A stretch of DNA of 64,000 bases from Cytophagaceae bacterium (GTDB taxonomy: Bacteria; Bacteroidota; Bacteroidia; Cytophagales; Flexibacteraceae): assembly GCA_027490155.1 (NCBI GenBank), contig JAIXYP010000005.1:1-64000 (forward strand), given 5' to 3'. A program made the position numbers and the translations under genes. Of the stretch, positions 12,006 to 23,976 are shown in pieces. The notes beneath the pieces were generated by a model, which was not told where the DNA came from, did no database searches, and saw only the letters and a program-made list of their open reading frames with translations. Numbering within the stretch: the first letter of the stretch is position 1; each line of letters opens with the position of its first letter.

Positions 12006-12045
12006 ACTGTTAACATCCTCAGTGTACCATCCTGACCAATTTGCA

Positions 12046-15000
12046 ATGACAATGAACTTTACTCCTCTTTGGCGTTCGATAGGTTGTTTGATTTTGGTGG
12101 TTGCTAGCTTTTTGCTGGCCCAAACCTTGACTTATGCCCAATCGCCTAGCAGGTTTACAAGTGGCGACTTTGCTAGTCCAAATAACTGGAGCCAAGGTAG
12201 CTCGGTCGGGATGACCAGTGCCTTTAGCAGCTTTGTCCATACCACAAACGCCAACGGAACTGGCAATCGGTATTTTAGGTTTTACAGTGCCACCTCAGGG
12301 GGTACAACTTATGAGCCGAATGGCGGATCAGATATTTTGCTTAGCACCAATACCCCAACGGCACTGCAGGTTACTGGCTCGGGCAAAGCCTATTTCCTGA
12401 ACGTTAGTTCTGCTGCTGATAACTATGTCTTCAAGACAAGCGGAAGTGGCAGCCCTGGCACAAGTCGTCTGATTATTTTTAGGGTTCAGGGTGTTGTCCG
12501 CGCCGTTAACAGTGGGACTAACGTTACTCGGAGCCCTTCCGGAACAGTCTATCCTGGGCAAAATATTGTGGTATCGGCCGTAGCTAATGGTGTTTTAGCC
12601 ACAGGGCAACGGATGTACCTTCGGTACACAACCAATAGTTTTACTTCCAGCACCATCATACCGATGGCATTTGTAAGTGGCACTACCTATTCGGCTACAA
12701 TCCCTGCCTCAGATAACCAGGCAGGTGCCACCTTGAACTACTATGTCTTGACAAGTGGAGGCAATACAGACGGATCGGCTCTGTCCATCAGCCATTCGGA
12801 TGCTGACCTTTTTACCATAAATGGTCAGACCAACGGTGGCAGTAACTATAGCTACATGGTCGCCAATAGTTGGGTGTCGGCTGCAGCAACTGCTTGGAGC
12901 CTTGGGACAACTTGGGCAGGTGGAGTAATCCCTACTGAAGGTTATCCGGTTACGATAAACCATGGTGTCACACTTGACCTTGCTACTAGGTCTGTTTCGG
13001 CCCTAACGATTGCTGATGGTATTACCCTAGCTCTTGGTAACAATAGTTTGACTATTGCCTCCACAACTAGCGGAACCTCTTTGACAGGTGGTGGTGTAAC
13101 TGGCTCGACTGTTACTTCTTCGGCCACTGGGAGGCTTATTACTTCAGGCACTGGTACCCAGTCCTTTACGGGCAGACTCACCTTGCCCAACACTAGGATA
13201 GGTACTGCGGTTAACTTCGGTACCAATTCTACAATCGTAACTAGCTGCTCCTTGACCTTGGTTGCTGGAGGATCTGTTAGTACGAATGCGCCTACCTATG
13301 CTACCGGATCGACCCTTGAGTACGCCCAAACAGGCACCGTCAGTCGAGGGACGGAGTGGAGTGCCTCCTCAGGAGCAGGATATCCAGCCAATGTGTTGTT
13401 AACAGGCACCATCCTCAACATGGGCTCCGGAATTTCAGACATCCGATGTGCCGAGAACCTTAATATCCCCTCGGGTACCACTCTAAGCATGCAGGCTACT
13501 TCGGGTGCGTTGATCGTAGGCAGCCTAACACTCGGAGGGACCATTGTTCAGAGCACTAATAGTAGTAGCTCATTACGGTGCGAAACCAATGTCCTGATAG
13601 CTGCAGGATCTACCTATACGCATAATAGCCGCACGCTTTCGATGTTCGGTGCCACCAACGGTACTATTTCAGGCCTAGGTACTGCGCCACTTTTTGGCCT
13701 TGAGGTCAATAAAACTGTCGGTGCTAAAGTTACAATAACTGATCCTAGGTCCTTGGCCAGTTCCGGATCATTATCCCTTACTAATGGCATTCTGGAGGCT
13801 TCTACCAACTTATCTATAGGGTCAGCGGGGACAGTCACTCGCGGTTTGGGCAGTCTTACAGGTACTGTGACTTTTGCAGGTAATAACCCAGTAACCTATA
13901 CTTCAACTTTCAGCGGTACGACAGGCCCTGAGCTTCCGGCTGATCCACAGTTAGCCGATATAAATATCAATAGTGGGGCAGTGGCCAGCTTGGGTAGGAG
14001 CATCGCCTTGAATTCTTCGAGAACGATGTTCGTTAACGGCACCCTCAACTTGGTGAGTAATACCATAACGGGTGCTGGCACGATGAATCTTGGCTCAACA
14101 GCTGTCGTCAACATCAACAACAGCGGTGGAATTTCGGCAGTTATGTTGCCAGACGCCATCGCCACGACGGAAGGGGCCATCATCAACTTATTATCGTCCG
14201 GAAGCTACGGAGCAGGTGGCCTAAACTTATCAGGAGTTAACTTGGTTATCAAATCTCCTGCAGTGGTCACAGCAGCTGGTGCTGCCACATTTGCCGGCCT
14301 TTCTGTCGAAAGTGGGGCATCTTTTAATCAAACGGCTGGCAACCTGACCATTACCAGAAGTACACCCGCCATCTCATTCAACATTGTGGGGTCCTTTAGC
14401 ACATCAGGCACAATAGCCTTTACTGGGTCTGCAACACACACAACAATTGGCGCAGTTACTTTCCAGAATCTAAACCTCAGCAGATCAGTCAACTTCCCGG
14501 CAGGGGTTACAGTCAACGGTACCTTAAACATTCTAGCCAATGGTGCTATCCTCAGCAATGCACTTACTTATGGCCCAACTGCCAACCTGACGTACAACAC
14601 CGGAGGTTCTTACACACGCAACCTAGAGTGGAGTGCTATTACTGGCCCTGGCTATCCTAAGGACGTGACCATTTCAGCAGGTACCACGCTCAACTTATTA
14701 GGATCAAGCTCGGCTAATCGGCAGATCTCGGGAGATCTTGTTGTAAGTGGAAGCCTCAATCTTGGTTCGATGTCCAACAAACTCCTTGTGTTGGGAAATA
14801 CAACCCTTAATGGCAGCCTTATTCTAGGTTCGGCTGCTGGTGGGGATCTAGAGCTAAAGCAGCAATTGATTGTCAACGCAGGTGCTATCTACAATGCCAA
14901 TGGTAGGGAGATGTTATTCTCTGGTACTGTTACCCAATCCATATCTGGGTCGTTTGTTGGTACCCTAGGCCTATCATTGGTTGGATACTCAGGGACCTCC

Positions 15001-17994
15001 ACCTTGACTTTTGGCTTGCCTGTTAGTGTAAGCAGCCGCTTCCGGCTTAGTTGCCCAACAGGAACCATCAACCCTGCAGGTAATCTCACAATAAGCACTG
15101 GGGCTACTGTCTTCAGACAGGCTGGCACCTTTGTAACTGCTCCTGCCTTTGGTGGTGCTGTTATCATTAGCTACGGCAATAGCCAAAACCTGACTACAGA
15201 TAACGAGCTACCGACTAATGCTGCAAACATAGCCGCCATCTATGTCGATGCCAGTGCCTATACCACCACCCTGAACCGCAACTTGGTCATCAATAGTGGT
15301 AATTCGTTCAACCTCAATAACGGGATATTCGGACTGGGGACCAATACCATAACGGGGGCCGGTGCGATCAATCTCAATGGCGGTACCCTACGAATTGGCC
15401 ATGTAGGCGGTATTGCTGCAAGCTTGGCAACTACCATACGTAATTTCAATACTGGCATTATTGACTTCGACGGAGGAGGCGCCCAAAACGTCGGTGTTGT
15501 ACCTGGCCTAACAAATATGCGCCTCGCAACAATTGGTGCTGGGACTACTGTTACCCTAGATGCAGCCACGAATATCAGAGGCTTTTATGTAGGACCGGGC
15601 ACTAGCTTTGACCTCGGAGGGCGCACCCTCACTATAACCGTCTCTAGCACTGATACAACACTCTACAGCCTCGGGACCTTTGTGCATAGCAGTGGGAAGG
15701 TAGTATTTGCAGGCTCTAGCAGTGCAGTCCATATAATCAAAGGAACAGTAGGGCTATTTGATGTTGACATCATTCCTTCTGGTTTGTGTGGTATCAATTT
15801 TGGCACTGGCACTACCATAAATGGTACCCTCTCAATGTACACTGGTAGTTATTGTGTAACATCTGGGCCTACCTACGCCGTCGGCAGTACTTTAAATTAC
15901 CGATCTGGCGGGACTTATAACATCACGGTTGAGTGGAGCAATCCGTATAACGTTAGGGCAAGTTTCGCCACCTTGGTCAACATTGGAGGCAGTCTTCCGA
16001 CTGTAACCCGCACTATGCGGGGTAATCTGACGGTTGACTTTAATAGCGCTGTTAGTATGAACGAGTCTGGCAGCCGCATGACTGCCCCTTTTTCAGTTGA
16101 TGGGGACGTCATCCTTGATGGTGGGCTTTACCTCAGCAACCAAGTTGGAGGCGACCTAAGTATCGGAGGTAACTTTTATGTCAACTCCGGTTTTGCCTTT
16201 TTTGGTAACTCTAGGGCCGTGACATTCAATGGGGCAGGTAACCAAATGTTGGCCGGGACCTCCTCCTCACCTATCTACTTTCAGTTCCTGACCATTAACA
16301 AGCCTACTGGCGACTTTCTGTTTGACCACAGTTACATCCTTGATAACGGATCTGGAATGGCTCGTTTTTGGCAAATGTCCGGCACTACCTATCTCAATAA
16401 TCAACCTATCAATCTGTCCGGTAGTGGTAGCAAAATCTTCAGGGTTGATGCCGGGACCGTTTATACCGATGGCACCAACCTCAATGTTTCGACCTTGACG
16501 TTTCAGGATGGGGTGCCAACCACAGGCCGCCTTGGTGGCACAATCATTTACAACAAAACTGGTTCTGAAAATCTAGTCGGTGTTGTCTATTACAACCTAA
16601 GCCTTGCGGGCAGTAGTACCAAAACCATGGTAGGCAACCTGAGCATTGAAGGCTTGTTGGACATGACTGGCGGGGCTACTTTGGACAAAGCTGGCTTCAC
16701 CTTGGCTTATGGCAGCACTGGATCGCTGCGATATGCGGGAAACTTGTTCCAGACTGCTGGCGACGAATGGCCAGCTGATGCCAGTCCACTGAATGTCGAG
16801 ATCAACAACCCTGCTTATGTCACCTTAGGAGCTCCTCGGACCATCGCTGGGACCCTCACGATGCGTAGCGGAGACCTGAACTTGGCTGGCAATGTGCTCA
16901 CGGTCGGCACTTCAGCCCTCAGTACCGGCAATGTGGTATTGTCATCCAGCTCCACTGGTGCTATTATTGGTCTGCTAAGGCGCTGGATTAGCACGGCAGC
17001 ATCCACATACCAATTCCCGATCGGGCTAACTGCAACAAGGCGCAATGCTGAGGTTGCATTTTCCGCTGCGCCAAGTGGTGGTGGTACCCTAACTGCTCAG
17101 TTTATCCCTGGCAGACCTACGGAGACAGGTTTCCCGCTAGACCAAGGCGGTATCACGGTAGGTAACCTTGGTGCCAACGGGATATGGGAAATTGAAGCGG
17201 GGGATGGCTTATCAGGTGGTACTTACGGAATCACCCTAACAGGCACCTCTTTCCTTGGTGTCAATAATGTAAACCGATTGGTTTTGGTCAAACGTGCCAG
17301 CTCTGGTGATCCGTGGACTTTGGTAGGTACCCATATCCCGACGGCAGGAACCGCCTCTGAACCAATTGCCATGCGAACTGGGCTGACCTCATTTTCGCAG
17401 TTCGGTATTGGTGGCAATTACTATGAAAATCCGCTGCCAGTAACCTTGACCTATTTTGGGGGCAACCGCATGGGCTCAGCAGACTACCTGAGCTGGATAA
17501 CGACCGAGGAGCTAGACAACGCGGGTTTTGTCCTCAGTATCAGCGAGGATGGCATAACCTATCAAGAGGTTAGGTTCGTAGCCTCAACCGCAACGGGCAA
17601 GGGGCTTGTCCGGTATGCTGAAACCATTGAGATCGATAATCCAGCCTCCAAAATTTATTATCGCCTTCAACAGCGTGATCATAATGGCATGATCAGCGGT
17701 ACCTGGTTTGCAGTTATCCAGTCCCGCTCATCAGAGGTTGGGCAGGTCGCAATATGGCCGAACCCTGTTACTGCTAACACCAAAATCATCTTACCCTTTA
17801 GGTCAAACGAACCTTGCCAATTGGAGTTGTTAGATGCTACTGGCCGTGTATTGCATTATGTCAGCAACACCTTGCCTCCCCAAGCCTCTGACCAAGTGGT
17901 TGACTTTATCAGGACTCTGCCAGCAGGAACTTATTGGTTGCGTGCTTCAAACCAGACTACCGTATTGCCGGTGGTGAAGGTGAGTAGTTATTAG
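12046..17994 (+). CDS. Giant repeat-rich surface protein with T9SS type A sorting domain
   Basis: About 1,980 residues. An upstream GTG at 12022 is in frame, but the ATGs at 12046/12052 are followed by a normal signal peptide (RSIGCLILVVASFLLAQTLTYAQ). An N-terminal beta-rich module is followed by a very long Ser/Thr/Gly/Asn-rich region starting near the WSLGTTWAGGVIP segment, with short strands and GTLNL, GAGTMNL or GAGAINLN turns that look like a parallel beta-helix. Four degenerate modules carry an EW or DEWPA core (TEWSASSGAGYP, LEWSAITGPGYP, VEWSNPYN, DEWPADASP). The C-terminal ~80 residues (AIWPNPVTAN, LLDATGRVLHY, LPAGTYWLRAS, LPVVKV) are a T9SS type A sorting domain, so it is exported across the outer membrane. 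Adhesion or matrix function is inferred; no catalytic motif is seen. Confidence 0.87.
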   Translation: MTMNFTPLWRSIGCLILVVASFLLAQTLTYAQSPSRFTSGDFASPNNWSQGSSVGMTSAFSSFVHTTNANGTGNRYFRFYSATSGGTTYEPNGGSDILLSTNTPTALQVTGSGKAYFLNVSSAADNYVFKTSGSGSPGTSRLIIFRVQGVVRAVNSGTNVTRSPSGTVYPGQNIVVSAVANGVLATGQRMYLRYTTNSFTSSTIIPMAFVSGTTYSATIPASDNQAGATLNYYVLTSGGNTDGSALSISHSDADLFTINGQTNGGSNYSYMVANSWVSAAATAWSLGTTWAGGVIPTEGYPVTINHGVTLDLATRSVSALTIADGITLALGNNSLTIASTTSGTSLTGGGVTGSTVTSSATGRLITSGTGTQSFTGRLTLPNTRIGTAVNFGTNSTIVTSCSLTLVAGGSVSTNAPTYATGSTLEYAQTGTVSRGTEWSASSGAGYPANVLLTGTILNMGSGISDIRCAENLNIPSGTTLSMQATSGALIVGSLTLGGTIVQSTNSSSSLRCETNVLIAAGSTYTHNSRTLSMFGATNGTISGLGTAPLFGLEVNKTVGAKVTITDPRSLASSGSLSLTNGILEASTNLSIGSAGTVTRGLGSLTGTVTFAGNNPVTYTSTFSGTTGPELPADPQLADININSGAVASLGRSIALNSSRTMFVNGTLNLVSNTITGAGTMNLGSTAVVNINNSGGISAVMLPDAIATTEGAIINLLSSGSYGAGGLNLSGVNLVIKSPAVVTAAGAATFAGLSVESGASFNQTAGNLTITRSTPAISFNIVGSFSTSGTIAFTGSATHTTIGAVTFQNLNLSRSVNFPAGVTVNGTLNILANGAILSNALTYGPTANLTYNTGGSYTRNLEWSAITGPGYPKDVTISAGTTLNLLGSSSANRQISGDLVVSGSLNLGSMSNKLLVLGNTTLNGSLILGSAAGGDLELKQQLIVNAGAIYNANGREMLFSGTVTQSISGSFVGTLGLSLVGYSGTSTLTFGLPVSVSSRFRLSCPTGTINPAGNLTISTGATVFRQAGTFVTAPAFGGAVIISYGNSQNLTTDNELPTNAANIAAIYVDASAYTTTLNRNLVINSGNSFNLNNGIFGLGTNTITGAGAINLNGGTLRIGHVGGIAASLATTIRNFNTGIIDFDGGGAQNVGVVPGLTNMRLATIGAGTTVTLDAATNIRGFYVGPGTSFDLGGRTLTITVSSTDTTLYSLGTFVHSSGKVVFAGSSSAVHIIKGTVGLFDVDIIPSGLCGINFGTGTTINGTLSMYTGSYCVTSGPTYAVGSTLNYRSGGTYNITVEWSNPYNVRASFATLVNIGGSLPTVTRTMRGNLTVDFNSAVSMNESGSRMTAPFSVDGDVILDGGLYLSNQVGGDLSIGGNFYVNSGFAFFGNSRAVTFNGAGNQMLAGTSSSPIYFQFLTINKPTGDFLFDHSYILDNGSGMARFWQMSGTTYLNNQPINLSGSGSKIFRVDAGTVYTDGTNLNVSTLTFQDGVPTTGRLGGTIIYNKTGSENLVGVVYYNLSLAGSSTKTMVGNLSIEGLLDMTGGATLDKAGFTLAYGSTGSLRYAGNLFQTAGDEWPADASPLNVEINNPAYVTLGAPRTIAGTLTMRSGDLNLAGNVLTVGTSALSTGNVVLSSSSTGAIIGLLRRWISTAASTYQFPIGLTATRRNAEVAFSAAPSGGGTLTAQFIPGRPTETGFPLDQGGITVGNLGANGIWEIEAGDGLSGGTYGITLTGTSFLGVNNVNRLVLVKRASSGDPWTLVGTHIPTAGTASEPIAMRTGLTSFSQFGIGGNYYENPLPVTLTYFGGNRMGSADYLSWITTEELDNAGFVLSISEDGITYQEVRFVASTATGKGLVRYAETIEIDNPASKIYYRLQQRDHNGMISGTWFAVIQSRSSEVGQVAIWPNPVTANTKIILPFRSNEPCQLELLDATGRVLHYVSNTLPPQASDQVVDFIRTLPAGTYWLRASNQTTVLPVVKVSSY

Positions 17995-21313: not shown

Positions 21314-23296
21314 ATGCCTAAAGTACCAACTTCCCCATACACCAACCAACCTCGCTGGGGTTGGGGTCTTTTAGCTAGTCTGGTGTTGGCAGTAATCCTA
21401 TTTCTATTCATCCAGTATATTGTTCGTAGCAAGGCTGATGTCCAGGTTGAGGATTTGGCCTACGAATTCGAGGTGCCAGCCGCCAATATGCACCGATTTA
21501 CAGGTCTTGAAGGTCCAGATACCAAAAGTGTAGTCCCGCCAGAGGGCTTCACTTCTTGGCACAACTACGAAACTGGTTCCACAAACCAGATCGCAATCTT
21601 GCTCACTGACACAACTAGTTCTTGGCTTGGCATGGTGCAAGGTATGCAGTCAGCAGGGTTGCCATTTTGTTTGACTACATCGGTAGATAAAGCACTTCGC
21701 CATAACATGGTCTTGATCTATCCTAATCTCAGGAGCAACTACTTTTCGAAGGAGGAGATCAACAAGTTGGCCGATTATAGTAGGGAGCCATCTTTAGGTG
21801 GGGAGCATAGGGTGCTTTGTGCCTTCGGTCTAACCGGGGGCGGGCTTGAGGAGGCCTTTGGAGTCCGATTAGGAAAACCAAGCAAGACACGTTTTAACCT
21901 CTTGATCAATAATCAACTGCCTATCAGCCGTGATCTGCGTGAGCCTGAAGAATTAGCGTGGCGATTAGGTGACTCAGTCATTTATAAAGAAGTTCAGGTC
22001 ACTTTATCTTACCAGATCACTGGCAAAGCGACCTATCCACTTGTGCGATTTGACAAAGGTGATACCTCAGGGGTGGCTGTGTCCTATCGGCAGCTAGACA
22101 CGGGCCCACGTCTGTTGGCTTGGGGGATTGATCTTGGGGATTATGTCCTGCGGAACTATAATGGACGGGGATATGAAGGTTTCAAATCCTTTGTGAATGC
22201 TTATGAGCCAGGTATTGATGTTTTGTTTTTGCTTCTGCGGAAACTTTATCAAGATGCTGACCCCAGCACCGCAGTCACACTATGGCCTGTCCCAGATGGC
22301 AAGGGGCTGGAGCTCAATATTACCCATGACGTTGACTATACAAAGTCCATTGTGAATGGTGTCAAGTTCGCTGAATGGGAAAAACAAGCCGGCATTAAGG
22401 CAACCTATTTTGTCCAGACCAAGTACATTAAGGATTGGAACGATGATCTATTTTTAAACAACCTAGGTGCCAAGTGCATCAGCCAGATTAATGCCCTCGG
22501 GATGGAGATCAGCAGTCACTCTGTGGCGCATAGTTATGTGTACAATAACTTTCCGATGGGAACTGGCACAGAACGATACCCGAACTACCAGCCCTTTGTG
22601 ATGGAGCGTTACAAGTGCTATAATGGATCAATCTTGGGCGAGCTGAGAGTTTCACGGTTCTTGATCCAGCATTTTGCACCAGGTGCCCAATGTCTTTCAT
22701 TCCGCCCAGGTCACCTAAGCAACCCGCTTAACTTGCCCGAGGCCCTTTTGGCAACTGGGTATCGAAACCTTAGTACCATCCCTGCCTGTATGGCTCAAAG
22801 CTACAGGCCATTTTATTGCCGATACGGACGCAGTAGCTTCCAGCAGTTGCCAATTGTTGAACTGCCCATTGCGGTTGAGGACGAAAAAGATGGTCCAATG
22901 ATTAACCGTATTGCTGCAGGCATCAGGCTCGGGAGGTGTATCGCCCGTTATGGTGGCTATTACAATGCCTTGATCCATACCGACACCCTAGGCCAAAAAC
23001 TAGAATATGAAAAACAGCTCGTCGCAGCTCTTAGACCCATAGCACATATCACCACCGTGGCCGAAAGTGGGGACTGGTACCAGACATTGCTAGGCCTGCA
23101 GATTAGAAAAACTACTAATGGCCAGCTAGAAGTCTTGACCGCAAACCCTTATGCCAAGGTCAAATCTGGGCTCACCTTGTTGGTACCGTCTGGTTTCAAA
23201 ATTGTAGGAAAGGGCATCACCCCTGCAGGGCGTCAAAATTTATTCATCTTGCCAGCGTTTCAGGCACGTATGACTATATCAGTTATCCCAACCTGA
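21314..23296 (+). CDS. Membrane-anchored polysaccharide-deacetylase-like (CE4/NodB) protein
   Basis: 660 residues. A single N-terminal transmembrane helix (about 17-37, LLASLVLAVILFLFIQYIV) anchors a periplasmic or surface protein. Residues about 60-310 form an alpha/beta region that I cannot assign with confidence; its pattern (IAILLTDTTSSWLGMVQGMQ, then NMVLIYPNL) suggests a Rossmann or GATase1-like fold. Residues about 325-590 resemble a NodB/CE4 deacetylase: ITHDVD with H338, D339 and D341, metal-binding H402 and H406 in SHSVAHS, and FRPGH with R464/P465. Catalysis of N- or O-deacetylation of an envelope or exopolysaccharide glycan is inferred. A beta-like tail ends the protein. The next gene begins only 11 bp downstream, so the two are probably co-transcribed. 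Confidence 0.75.
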   Translation: MPKVPTSPYTNQPRWGWGLLASLVLAVILFLFIQYIVRSKADVQVEDLAYEFEVPAANMHRFTGLEGPDTKSVVPPEGFTSWHNYETGSTNQIAILLTDTTSSWLGMVQGMQSAGLPFCLTTSVDKALRHNMVLIYPNLRSNYFSKEEINKLADYSREPSLGGEHRVLCAFGLTGGGLEEAFGVRLGKPSKTRFNLLINNQLPISRDLREPEELAWRLGDSVIYKEVQVTLSYQITGKATYPLVRFDKGDTSGVAVSYRQLDTGPRLLAWGIDLGDYVLRNYNGRGYEGFKSFVNAYEPGIDVLFLLLRKLYQDADPSTAVTLWPVPDGKGLELNITHDVDYTKSIVNGVKFAEWEKQAGIKATYFVQTKYIKDWNDDLFLNNLGAKCISQINALGMEISSHSVAHSYVYNNFPMGTGTERYPNYQPFVMERYKCYNGSILGELRVSRFLIQHFAPGAQCLSFRPGHLSNPLNLPEALLATGYRNLSTIPACMAQSYRPFYCRYGRSSFQQLPIVELPIAVEDEKDGPMINRIAAGIRLGRCIARYGGYYNALIHTDTLGQKLEYEKQLVAALRPIAHITTVAESGDWYQTLLGLQIRKTTNGQLEVLTANPYAKVKSGLTLLVPSGFKIVGKGITPAGRQNLFILPAFQARMTISVIPT

Positions 23297-23307
23297 TCCT
23301 AACAGCA

Positions 23308-23976
23308 ATGATTTGTCAAATTTTAGGTGCAAAATCCAAGTTCAGCTTCGATTTGGTAGTCTGGCTTCTATTTGCCACTCTAGGAACCTTGCCTGCCTAC
23401 GGCCAAATACCGACCTCAATCAGCCATATACAAGATGTGCTGGCAGATGGGGCTGCTTCAATCAGCCCCGCTGATAGCCTTGACAAACAAATGCTCTACA
23501 TACCGTGGCCCGACGGTTGGGAGCTTGTCAAGAACAATGACAATGGCAAACGGGCTGATCTGCAGTTTTACCAAAAGGGGGAGAATCCTAGCAATTGGTC
23601 CGAAGCAGGCCTCATTTCTGCCATCTATAATAAGCGATTAGCCAACCTAGAGGAGTTTATGTATGACAACAATAGTGTCCTCCTGACCAATTGTGGTCAA
23701 CAGCAACACAAACTCATCAAACATCAGCCCACTGGTCCGGCCCCTTATATCGTCTATAGTTTTTCTTATGCCGATTGTGGCAAATCTACAGACGGTGCCA
23801 CCAAACAACCAACGCGTCCACAGTCTTGGTTATGCATTGTAGTGCAGGGGGCCAAGCACTTATTCATTGCTCAGTATGGCATCAAACAAGATCAATACGG
23901 GCCCATGCCTGCATCGATACAGAACCAATGGGTGAAAATTTTGGCCAAAGGACGTTTGATCAATATGCCAGAGTAG
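23308..23976 (+). CDS. Uncharacterised secreted protein paired with the deacetylase-like gene
   Basis: 222 residues with an N-terminal signal region (FDLVVWLLFATLGTLPAYGQ) after a longer than usual polar start. I recognise no domain. The mature part has five tryptophans, two cysteines that could form a disulphide (LLTNCGQQQ and SYADCGKS) and a beta-rich look. The start is 11 bp after the preceding stop on the same strand, so an operon with the deacetylase-like protein is likely and a shared role in envelope polysaccharide handling is possible. No terminator is visible in the 64 bp before the convergent DUF4292 gene. Confidence 0.7.
   Translation: MICQILGAKSKFSFDLVVWLLFATLGTLPAYGQIPTSISHIQDVLADGAASISPADSLDKQMLYIPWPDGWELVKNNDNGKRADLQFYQKGENPSNWSEAGLISAIYNKRLANLEEFMYDNNSVLLTNCGQQQHKLIKHQPTGPAPYIVYSFSYADCGKSTDGATKQPTRPQSWLCIVVQGAKHLFIAQYGIKQDQYGPMPASIQNQWVKILAKGRLINMPE

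What the first reader, a model, noticed from the sequence alone, without database searches (positions are those of the whole stretch)
21314..23976. Deacetylase-like membrane protein paired with an unknown secreted protein
The CE4-like domain keeps the H/D and H-x3-H metal residues but is fused after a membrane helix and a 250-residue region I cannot place. The next gene, 11 bp downstream, encodes a small secreted protein of no known family. The pair may modify an exopolysaccharide or envelope glycan.
Basis: partly seen in the sequence, partly recalled or inferred. Interest (0 to 1): 0.5.

Follow-up and report, generated by a model that had tools for sequence, protein, structure and literature searches.

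The report
Membrane-anchored biofilm-sugar deacetylase plus unknown neighbour
The first gene looks like a membrane-anchored enzyme that strips acetyl groups from a secreted biofilm sugar chain, built on a recently described plan, while its small neighbour gene is an unplaced protein found beside it only in a close relative.

Summary
The two genes are real and conserved. P1 (21314-23296, 660 aa) is a membrane-anchored carbohydrate-esterase protein. The "unplaceable" 250 residues are most likely a GATase1/ThuA-like alpha/beta domain. P1's layout (membrane helix, alpha/beta, esterase, short beta-rich end) is that published for Bacillus cereus PelADA and for the last three domains of Pseudomonas PelA, although PelG, a marker of pel systems, was not found. 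Full-length relatives turned up in a congener and in one alphaproteobacterial, one gammaproteobacterial and one Bacillota MAG. In the Bacillota MAG, P1 sits inside a synthase cluster: response regulator, HEAT protein, PgaC-like GT2 synthase, uncharacterised protein, P1, then a GH16-like hydrolase. All 5 genomes with a full-length P1 carry a close relative of that synthase (background 71/390 and 13/229); in the window's genome it lies on another contig. Best reading: P1 is an optional de-N-acetylase for this synthase's product. P2 (23308-23976) is a secreted protein under purifying selection, found in the two congeners (2 of 380 genomes, plus one weak domain match) and not beside P1 in the three other lineages. 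The "pair" looks like a lineage-specific addition, not a conserved system. Both structure models were poor; no activity is shown. New variant of a known kind; modest interest.

The parts
21314..23296 (+). P1: membrane-anchored carbohydrate-esterase (polysaccharide de-N-acetylase-like) protein, 660 aa
   Evidence: ORF; PF01522 at 22.1 bits, cut-off 23.1; full-length relatives L005, L006, L007 at 34-38% global identity
21356..21427 (+). P1 transmembrane helix, residues 15-38
   Evidence: helix in the model; hydrophobic stretch read from the sequence
21575..22261 (+). P1 N-terminal alpha/beta domain, about residues 88-316, GATase1/ThuA-like
   Evidence: N-terminal fragments of 6 family members: 3 match Glyco_hydro_42M (1e-4, 0.021, 0.21), one each DUF4159 and DUF4350; the window's own copy matches nothing; PelA 9CGY aligned over model residues 88-660 on a weak model
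22286..23098 (+). P1 carbohydrate-esterase domain, about residues 325-595
   Evidence: PF01522; VIA-align Z 13-17 to CE4 deacetylases
22325..22336 (+). MT1 motif H338-D339-V340-D341
   Evidence: H-D-x-D in 6 of 6 relatives
22517..22531 (+). MT2 motif H402-x3-H406
   Evidence: HxxxH in 6 of 6 relatives
22703..22708 (+). MT3 motif R464-P465
   Evidence: R in 6 of 6, P in 5 of 6
22976..22978 (+). MT5 histidine H555
   Evidence: LIH in 6 of 6
23099..23293 (+). P1 C-terminal beta-rich segment, residues 596-660
   Evidence: strands modelled, at low confidence; same length class as the PelADA C-terminal domain (PMC13254593 section 4)
23308..23976 (+). P2: secreted protein of unplaced family, 222 aa
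   Evidence: ORF; dN/dS 0.16; found in 2 of 380 genomes of the order plus a weak match to the C-terminal part of a TPR protein in a third

Best explanation
P1 is anchored by one helix in the inner membrane with its bulk in the periplasm. Its esterase domain, using a metal bound by D341, H402 and H406 with D339 as base and H555 as acid, removes acetyl groups from an N-acetylated exopolysaccharide as the chain passes. The N-terminal alpha/beta domain probably binds or guides the chain, as the corresponding domain of B. cereus PelADA does. The chain is most likely made by the PgaC-like GT2 synthase of a response regulator-YaiO-HEAT-GT2 cluster, which in this genome lies on another contig. P2 is a lineage-specific secreted accessory, probably co-transcribed with P1, of unknown role. 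Shown here: the genes, conserved motifs, family spread, clustering in L006, a close synthase relative in every genome with a full-length P1, and no PelG match. Inferred: layout and topology in detail, catalysis, substrate, co-transcription, and the link between the two loci.
For: Motifs conserved in 6 of 6. PF01522 above cut-off in L006 (24.5 bits) and L007 (30.0). Esterase fold Z 13-17 and PelA 9CGY Z 13.3, 373 residues spanning 88-660. L006 cluster order RR-HEAT-GT2-DUF-P1-(328-aa protein)-GH16-like. The GT2's best NCBIfam model is PgaC/IcaA, 1e-38 (L019) and 1e-42 (L006), below the equivalog cut-off, with QxxRW in 7 of 7 compared. One GT2 match, E 3.8e-109 or better, in each of 5 of 5 genomes with a full-length P1 (in G391 it is the query itself), against 71 of 390 and 13 of 229 at 1e-60. 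PelADA layout, activity and N-terminal carbohydrate binding: PMC13254593 (sections 4, 5 and passages).
Against: The window's own P1 is just below the PF01522 cut-off, and L005 is below too. The AlphaFold model is weak: mean pLDDT 47, most of the N-terminal domain below 50. In 3 of 4 lineages P1 lies apart from the GT2 cluster, and 69 of 71 synthase-bearing genomes of the order have no P1 match at 1e-10, so the synthase does not need P1. The count rests on four lineages, one of which (L006) suggested the link; backgrounds for the alphaproteobacterial and Bacillota groups were not measured. The genome of the distant relative, G186, has no match to this GT2; beside its P1-like gene lies a remoter GT2 (28% identity, 2e-26 by direct tblastn), which one search did not report, so that call's silence on weaker matches is not reliable.
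Confidence: 0.62

Rival explanations
1. P1 is a polysaccharide deacetylase acting on another envelope glycan (peptidoglycan, lipopolysaccharide or another exopolysaccharide), unrelated to the C64 synthase.
For: P1 and the GT2 lie on different contigs of the window genome; the structural neighbours listed include peptidoglycan deacetylases.
Against: P1 is inside the synthase cluster in L006 and a close relative of the synthase is present in 5 of 5 genomes with a full-length P1.
Confidence: 0.25
2. P1 belongs to a pel system and deacetylates Pel (alpha-1,4-GalNAc).
For: Similar domain layout to PelADA and PelA, and D-x-D spacing in MT1 as in PelA.
Against: PelG (PF16933) unmatched in 6 of 6 genomes with P1 or its distant relative, while the control search rang in Thermotoga maritima (completeness of the three MAGs G390-G392 is not told); no N-terminal hydrolase part; MT3 arginine present, unlike PelA.
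Confidence: 0.05
3. P1 and P2 form a dedicated two-protein enzyme-partner complex (P2 as substrate-binding or exporting partner).
For: 11-base spacing kept in two species, and both genes under purifying selection; in the family both occur in the same 2 of 11 genomes, one genus.
Against: P2 is not found in the stretches around P1 in L005, L006 or L007, and was found in 2 of 380 genomes of the order, plus one weak domain match.
Confidence: 0.3
4. P1 is a pseudoenzyme that binds polysaccharide without catalysis.
For: The MT1 order H-D-x-D differs from the adjacent aspartates of PelADA and from PelA in the position of the histidine.
Against: All five expected metal and catalytic positions (D339, D341, H402, H406, H555) are invariant in 6 of 6 relatives.
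Confidence: 0.08

Closest known systems
Bacillus cereus PelADA (PDB 9ZAU; PMC13254593)
   Same: Single membrane helix, N-terminal alpha/beta/alpha domain, esterase domain, short beta-rich C-terminal domain; HxxxH; metal-binding Asp and MT5 His; associated with exopolysaccharide synthesis.
   Different: PelADA has adjacent D262-D263, P1 has D-x-D; P1 keeps an arginine at MT3 next to the proline, while PelADA's base-coordinating arginine lies further downstream; P1 is linked to a PgaC-like GT2 system, not pelDEADAFG. Not compared by sequence here.
Pseudomonas PelA (CE21, PDB 9CGY; PMC12022489)
   Same: Alpha/beta domain (ThuA-like proteins among the top DALI hits in the paper), esterase and beta-rich domains in the same order; D-x-D in MT1; HxxxH.
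   Different: P1 lacks the N-terminal hydrolase; its MT1 histidine is one residue before the base instead of two; it has the MT3 arginine that PelA lacks; no PelG match in the genome.
CE4 polysaccharide deacetylases (PF01522), incl. PgaB/IcaB (recalled)
   Same: Esterase fold and motifs; the presumed partner synthase resembles PgaC/IcaA.
   Different: P1 of the window falls below the PF01522 cut-off; different N-terminal domain; not a PgaB-type two-domain protein (PgaB layout recalled).
DUF2194 (PF09960)
   Same: Recalled as deacetylase-like proteins of exopolysaccharide clusters.
   Different: P1 does not match PF09960 at E<=1, and PF09960 finds nothing in G000 at E<=0.001.

Membership tests
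CE4 / PF01522 Polysacc_deac_1 | Score above the curated cut-off (23.1 bits) | tested here: not met
   Window P1 22.1; relatives L006 24.5 and L007 30.0 pass, L005 19.2 does not
CE4 / PF01522 Polysacc_deac_1 | Metal triad Asp + HxxxH, MT5 His, MT3 Arg | tested here: met
   D341, H402, H406, H555, R464 in 6 of 6; the two MT1 aspartates are spaced D-x-D
CE21 (PelA) | Conserved His two residues before the base Asp and no Arg in MT3 | tested here: not met
   P1 family has T/S at that place, His at -1, and R464; CE21 features from PMC12022489 section 5
CE21 (PelA) | Alpha/beta, esterase and beta-rich domains in this order | tested here: inconclusive
   VIA-align Z 13.3, 373 aligned, rmsd 8.4, over 88-660, but on a model of pLDDT 47
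PelADA-type deacetylase | TM helix + alpha/beta/alpha (about 190 aa) + esterase (about 290 aa) + beta-rich end (about 67 aa) | tested here: inconclusive
   P1 segments about 229, 271 and 65 aa with matching order; no reliable model and no direct sequence comparison
Pel system | PelG exporter encoded in the genome | tested here: not met
   0 of 6 genomes; drafts, so gaps remain possible
GATase1/ThuA-like fold (P1 N-terminal domain) | Profile similarity to a member family | tested here: inconclusive
   Glyco_hydro_42M in 3 of 6 fragments (1e-4, 0.021, 0.21), DUF4159 and DUF4350 one each, below cut-off wherever bits were shown; window member none. PDB profile search: best hits FSP1 (0.017), then beta-galactosidases (0.11, 0.44)
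PgaC/IcaA (the GT2, G000:C64) | Equivalog cut-off of TIGR03937 (422.3 bits) | tested here: not met
   133 bits for L019, 146.5 for L006; still its best NCBIfam match
Any described family (P2) | Match in Pfam, NCBIfam or PDB | tested here: not met
   none in Pfam/NCBIfam at E<=1; PDB only a 22-residue match at E 0.5
PelADA-type deacetylase | De-N-acetylation of an exopolysaccharide | not testable with these tools
   needs biochemistry

The most novel reading that the evidence does not exclude
P1 founds a separate carbohydrate-esterase family (H-D-x-D plus MT3 Arg, with the KYIKDWNDD signature kept in 5 of 6 relatives) that serves as an interchangeable tailoring enzyme of an uncharacterised synthase-dependent exopolysaccharide system (response regulator-YaiO-HEAT-PgaC-like GT2) spread over Bacteroidota, Pseudomonadota and Bacillota; some other lineages carry sulfatase-superfamily domains beside or fused to the synthase instead.
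Probability: 0.4. Interest if true: 0.55.

Novelty: new variant of a known kind. Interest (0 to 1): 0.36.

Why it matters
If right, the PelA/PelADA deacetylase plan is not confined to Pel. It would also serve a widespread synthase cluster for which the paper searches listed no describing paper (listings only). That gives a concrete, testable lead on what this RR-YaiO-HEAT-GT2 cluster makes: an N-acetylated, partly deacetylated polymer.

Tried and rejected
A PDB search with P1 alone and hmmsearch with the whole-family profile gave only chance hits. The N-terminal-domain profile gave FSP1 first (0.017) and beta-galactosidases behind (0.11, 0.44), none convincing alone. AlphaFold of P2 (two-row alignment, pLDDT 38) and its Foldseek search gave nothing usable. 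My impression from the strand order that P2 might be PsbP/Mog1-like could not be tested. P1 and P2 in plasmids, and P1 in phages: no match. The DUF family next to the GT2 (L019:8467-9636, L006:4601-5704) is not visibly related to the P1 N-terminal domain (hhalign probability 0.6), so I dropped the idea that it shares that domain. The Paenibacillus homologue of that DUF led to a cluster with HEAT and GT2 but no P1 match, in an unannotated record. Trees of P1 (6 rows) and GT2 (7 rows) were too small to decide between co-inheritance and separate transfer. P1 searches near two other lineages found only the known genomes (1 of 229 at 1e-30; 1 of 28 at 1e-20); the surroundings of the alphaproteobacterial MAG were not searched. 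Weak rows (down to 44% and 29% identity) were counted as synthase-bearing, which makes the backgrounds generous. The first neighbourhood counts used a greedy ORF picker that missed real genes (P1 in L007, GT2 and YaiO in L065, HEAT in L084 and L087); one search repeated them by tblastn and the report uses the union.

Full report
Observation. The window holds ORFs at 21314-23296 (P1, 660 aa) and 23308-23976 (P2, 222 aa), same strand, 11 bases apart. A second species of the genus (L004) has both with the same spacing, at 91% and 85% protein identity. Counting substitutions gives dN/dS 0.14 for P1 and 0.16 for P2, so both are real genes. The neighbours are ordinary: upstream a 966-aa protein on the other strand that I read as glycine dehydrogenase, from recall; downstream, convergent, a DUF4292/LolB1 lipoprotein.

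What P1 is. Only the esterase part has a Pfam match, PF01522, at 22.1 bits against a cut-off of 23.1. Its relatives in L006 (24.5) and L007 (30.0) pass, and L005 (19.2) does not. Across six sequences including the distant L013 protein, T/S-H-D-x-D, HxxxH, the MT3 arginine and the MT5 histidine are invariant. The MT3 proline is kept in 5 of 6, and KYIKDWNDD in 5 of 6. The AlphaFold model is weak overall (pLDDT 47); its better stretches include parts of the esterase core, but other parts of the esterase are below 50. VIA-align puts CE4 deacetylases at Z 13-17, and PelA (9CGY) at Z 13.3 with 373 residues aligned over model residues 88-660, rmsd 8.4. VIA-align ranks only chains that Foldseek had already listed.

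N-terminal fragments of six family members were scanned: three match Glyco_hydro_42M (1e-4, 0.021, 0.21), one matches DUF4159 and one DUF4350, below cut-off wherever bits were shown, and the window's own copy matches none. That these three families share the GATase1 fold is recalled. The A1 profile aligns the L013 segment that carries the match with P1 at about residues 150-265. A PDB search with the fragment profile gave FSP1 first (0.017) and beta-galactosidases after (0.11, 0.44), weak in both cases. In the PelA paper the corresponding domain's top DALI hits include ThuA-like proteins (PMC12022489, section 4 part 1). In B. cereus PelADA the layout is membrane helix, alpha/beta/alpha 62-253, esterase 254-543, beta-rich to 610, and the N-terminal domain binds carbohydrate (PMC13254593, sections 4 and 5 and passages). 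P1 has segments of matching order and similar size. I take this as the most likely answer, not as proven.

P1 is probably not a pel protein. PelG (PF16933) is unmatched in 6 of 6 genomes with P1 or its distant relative; they are drafts. P1 keeps an MT3 arginine, which PelA lacks, and has its MT1 histidine one residue before the base, not two.

Where relatives occur. The pattern scan of about 85,000 species genomes returned 4 loci; it reaches only close relatives. In the window's family P1 and P2 occur in the same 2 of 11 genomes. At E 1e-10 the profile finds P1 in 3 of 390 genomes of the order: the window's genome, its congener, and a distant member in G186. It finds 1 of 229 in the class of the gammaproteobacterial MAG (1e-30) and 1 of 28 in the order of the Bacillota MAG (1e-20), in each case the genome already known. 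The spread is wide and sparse, which suggests transfer, but trees of 6 and 7 rows could not test this.

The synthase link. In L006 the order is response regulator, HEAT protein, GT2, uncharacterised 367-aa protein, P1, a 328-aa ORF (candidate outer-membrane protein by my reading, no Pfam match), and a GH16-like hydrolase (BglS model 1.4e-7, below cut-off). Searching with that GT2, each of the 5 genomes with a full-length P1 has one match, at 3.8e-109 or better; in G391 it is the query itself. G186 had none, yet a direct tblastn scores the GT2 beside its P1-like gene at 2e-26, 28% identity, so one search should not be trusted for weaker matches. The background at 1e-60 is 71 of 390 genomes in the order, G000 and G007 included, and 13 of 229 in the gammaproteobacterial class, G390 included; the other two groups were not measured. 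In the window's genome the GT2 is on contig C64 with an Hpt protein (my reading), a response regulator, a TPR-YaiO barrel, a HEAT protein and the uncharacterised protein, at least about 38 kb from P1 even if the contigs abut. In G390 and G392 it likewise stands with HEAT and YaiO genes, on another contig than P1. I looked at the GT2 loci of 14 of the 71 genomes of the order: response regulator in 13, HEAT in 11, YaiO/TPR in 10, the uncharacterised protein in 2, P1 in 0 of 14 (L061 is cut short). In 8 of the 13 gammaproteobacterial genomes, HEAT is at the locus in 8 (the weakest at 3e-4) and P1 in 0. So in these samples, where a full-length P1 is, the synthase is; the reverse does not hold (69 of 71 lack P1). 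This rests on four lineages, one of which supplied the hypothesis.

Chemistry. The GT2's best NCBIfam model is PgaC/IcaA, the poly-beta-1,6-GlcNAc synthase, at 133 and 146.5 bits, far below the equivalog cut-off, with a QxxRW motif in 7 of 7 compared. An N-acetylated polymer is thus plausible, and a periplasmic de-N-acetylase would play the part that PgaB or IcaB play for PNAG (recalled). This is inference.

P2. It is not found in the stretches held around P1 in L005, L006 or L007, by tblastn at E 0.01. In 380 genomes of the order it matches the two congeners and, weakly (1e-6), the C-terminal half of a TPR protein in G176 (22% identity). Whole-genome searches for P2 in the three MAGs were not run. 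Its role stays open; I commit to a secreted, lineage-specific accessory probably co-expressed with P1.

Verdict. The architecture is a recently described one, used here apart from pel and possibly with a widespread synthase cluster that the paper searches did not list as described (search listings only).

Noticed in passing
L055:7486-10497; L062:10480-12897; L064:4859-6862: Near the order's GT2 synthase, sulfatase-superfamily domains recur: fused to the GT2 in L055, in a neighbouring gene in L062 and L064. They may be alternative modifiers of the polymer.
   Followed up: partly
L019:8467-9636; L006:4601-5704; L069:8821-11922: An uncharacterised protein family with no Pfam match sits near the GT2. 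In Paenibacillus it is fused to a further ~650-aa part with no convincing Pfam match (TIM-barrel hydrolase-like by my reading).
   Followed up: partly
L013:1991-8198: A second, distant P1 relative with a T9SS sorting tail lies in a different cluster: GT2, TackOD1-domain protein, HlyD-like protein.
   Followed up: partly
window 21314-23976 against L004: Synonymous divergence of P1 (0.32) is lower than that of P2 (0.44) and of two neighbouring genes (0.57, 0.58) between the two congeners. Recombination or codon bias could explain it.
   Followed up: no
window 12022-17994: A 1990-aa GTG-start ORF, rich in S, T, N and G, looks like a large secreted surface protein (my reading).
   Followed up: no
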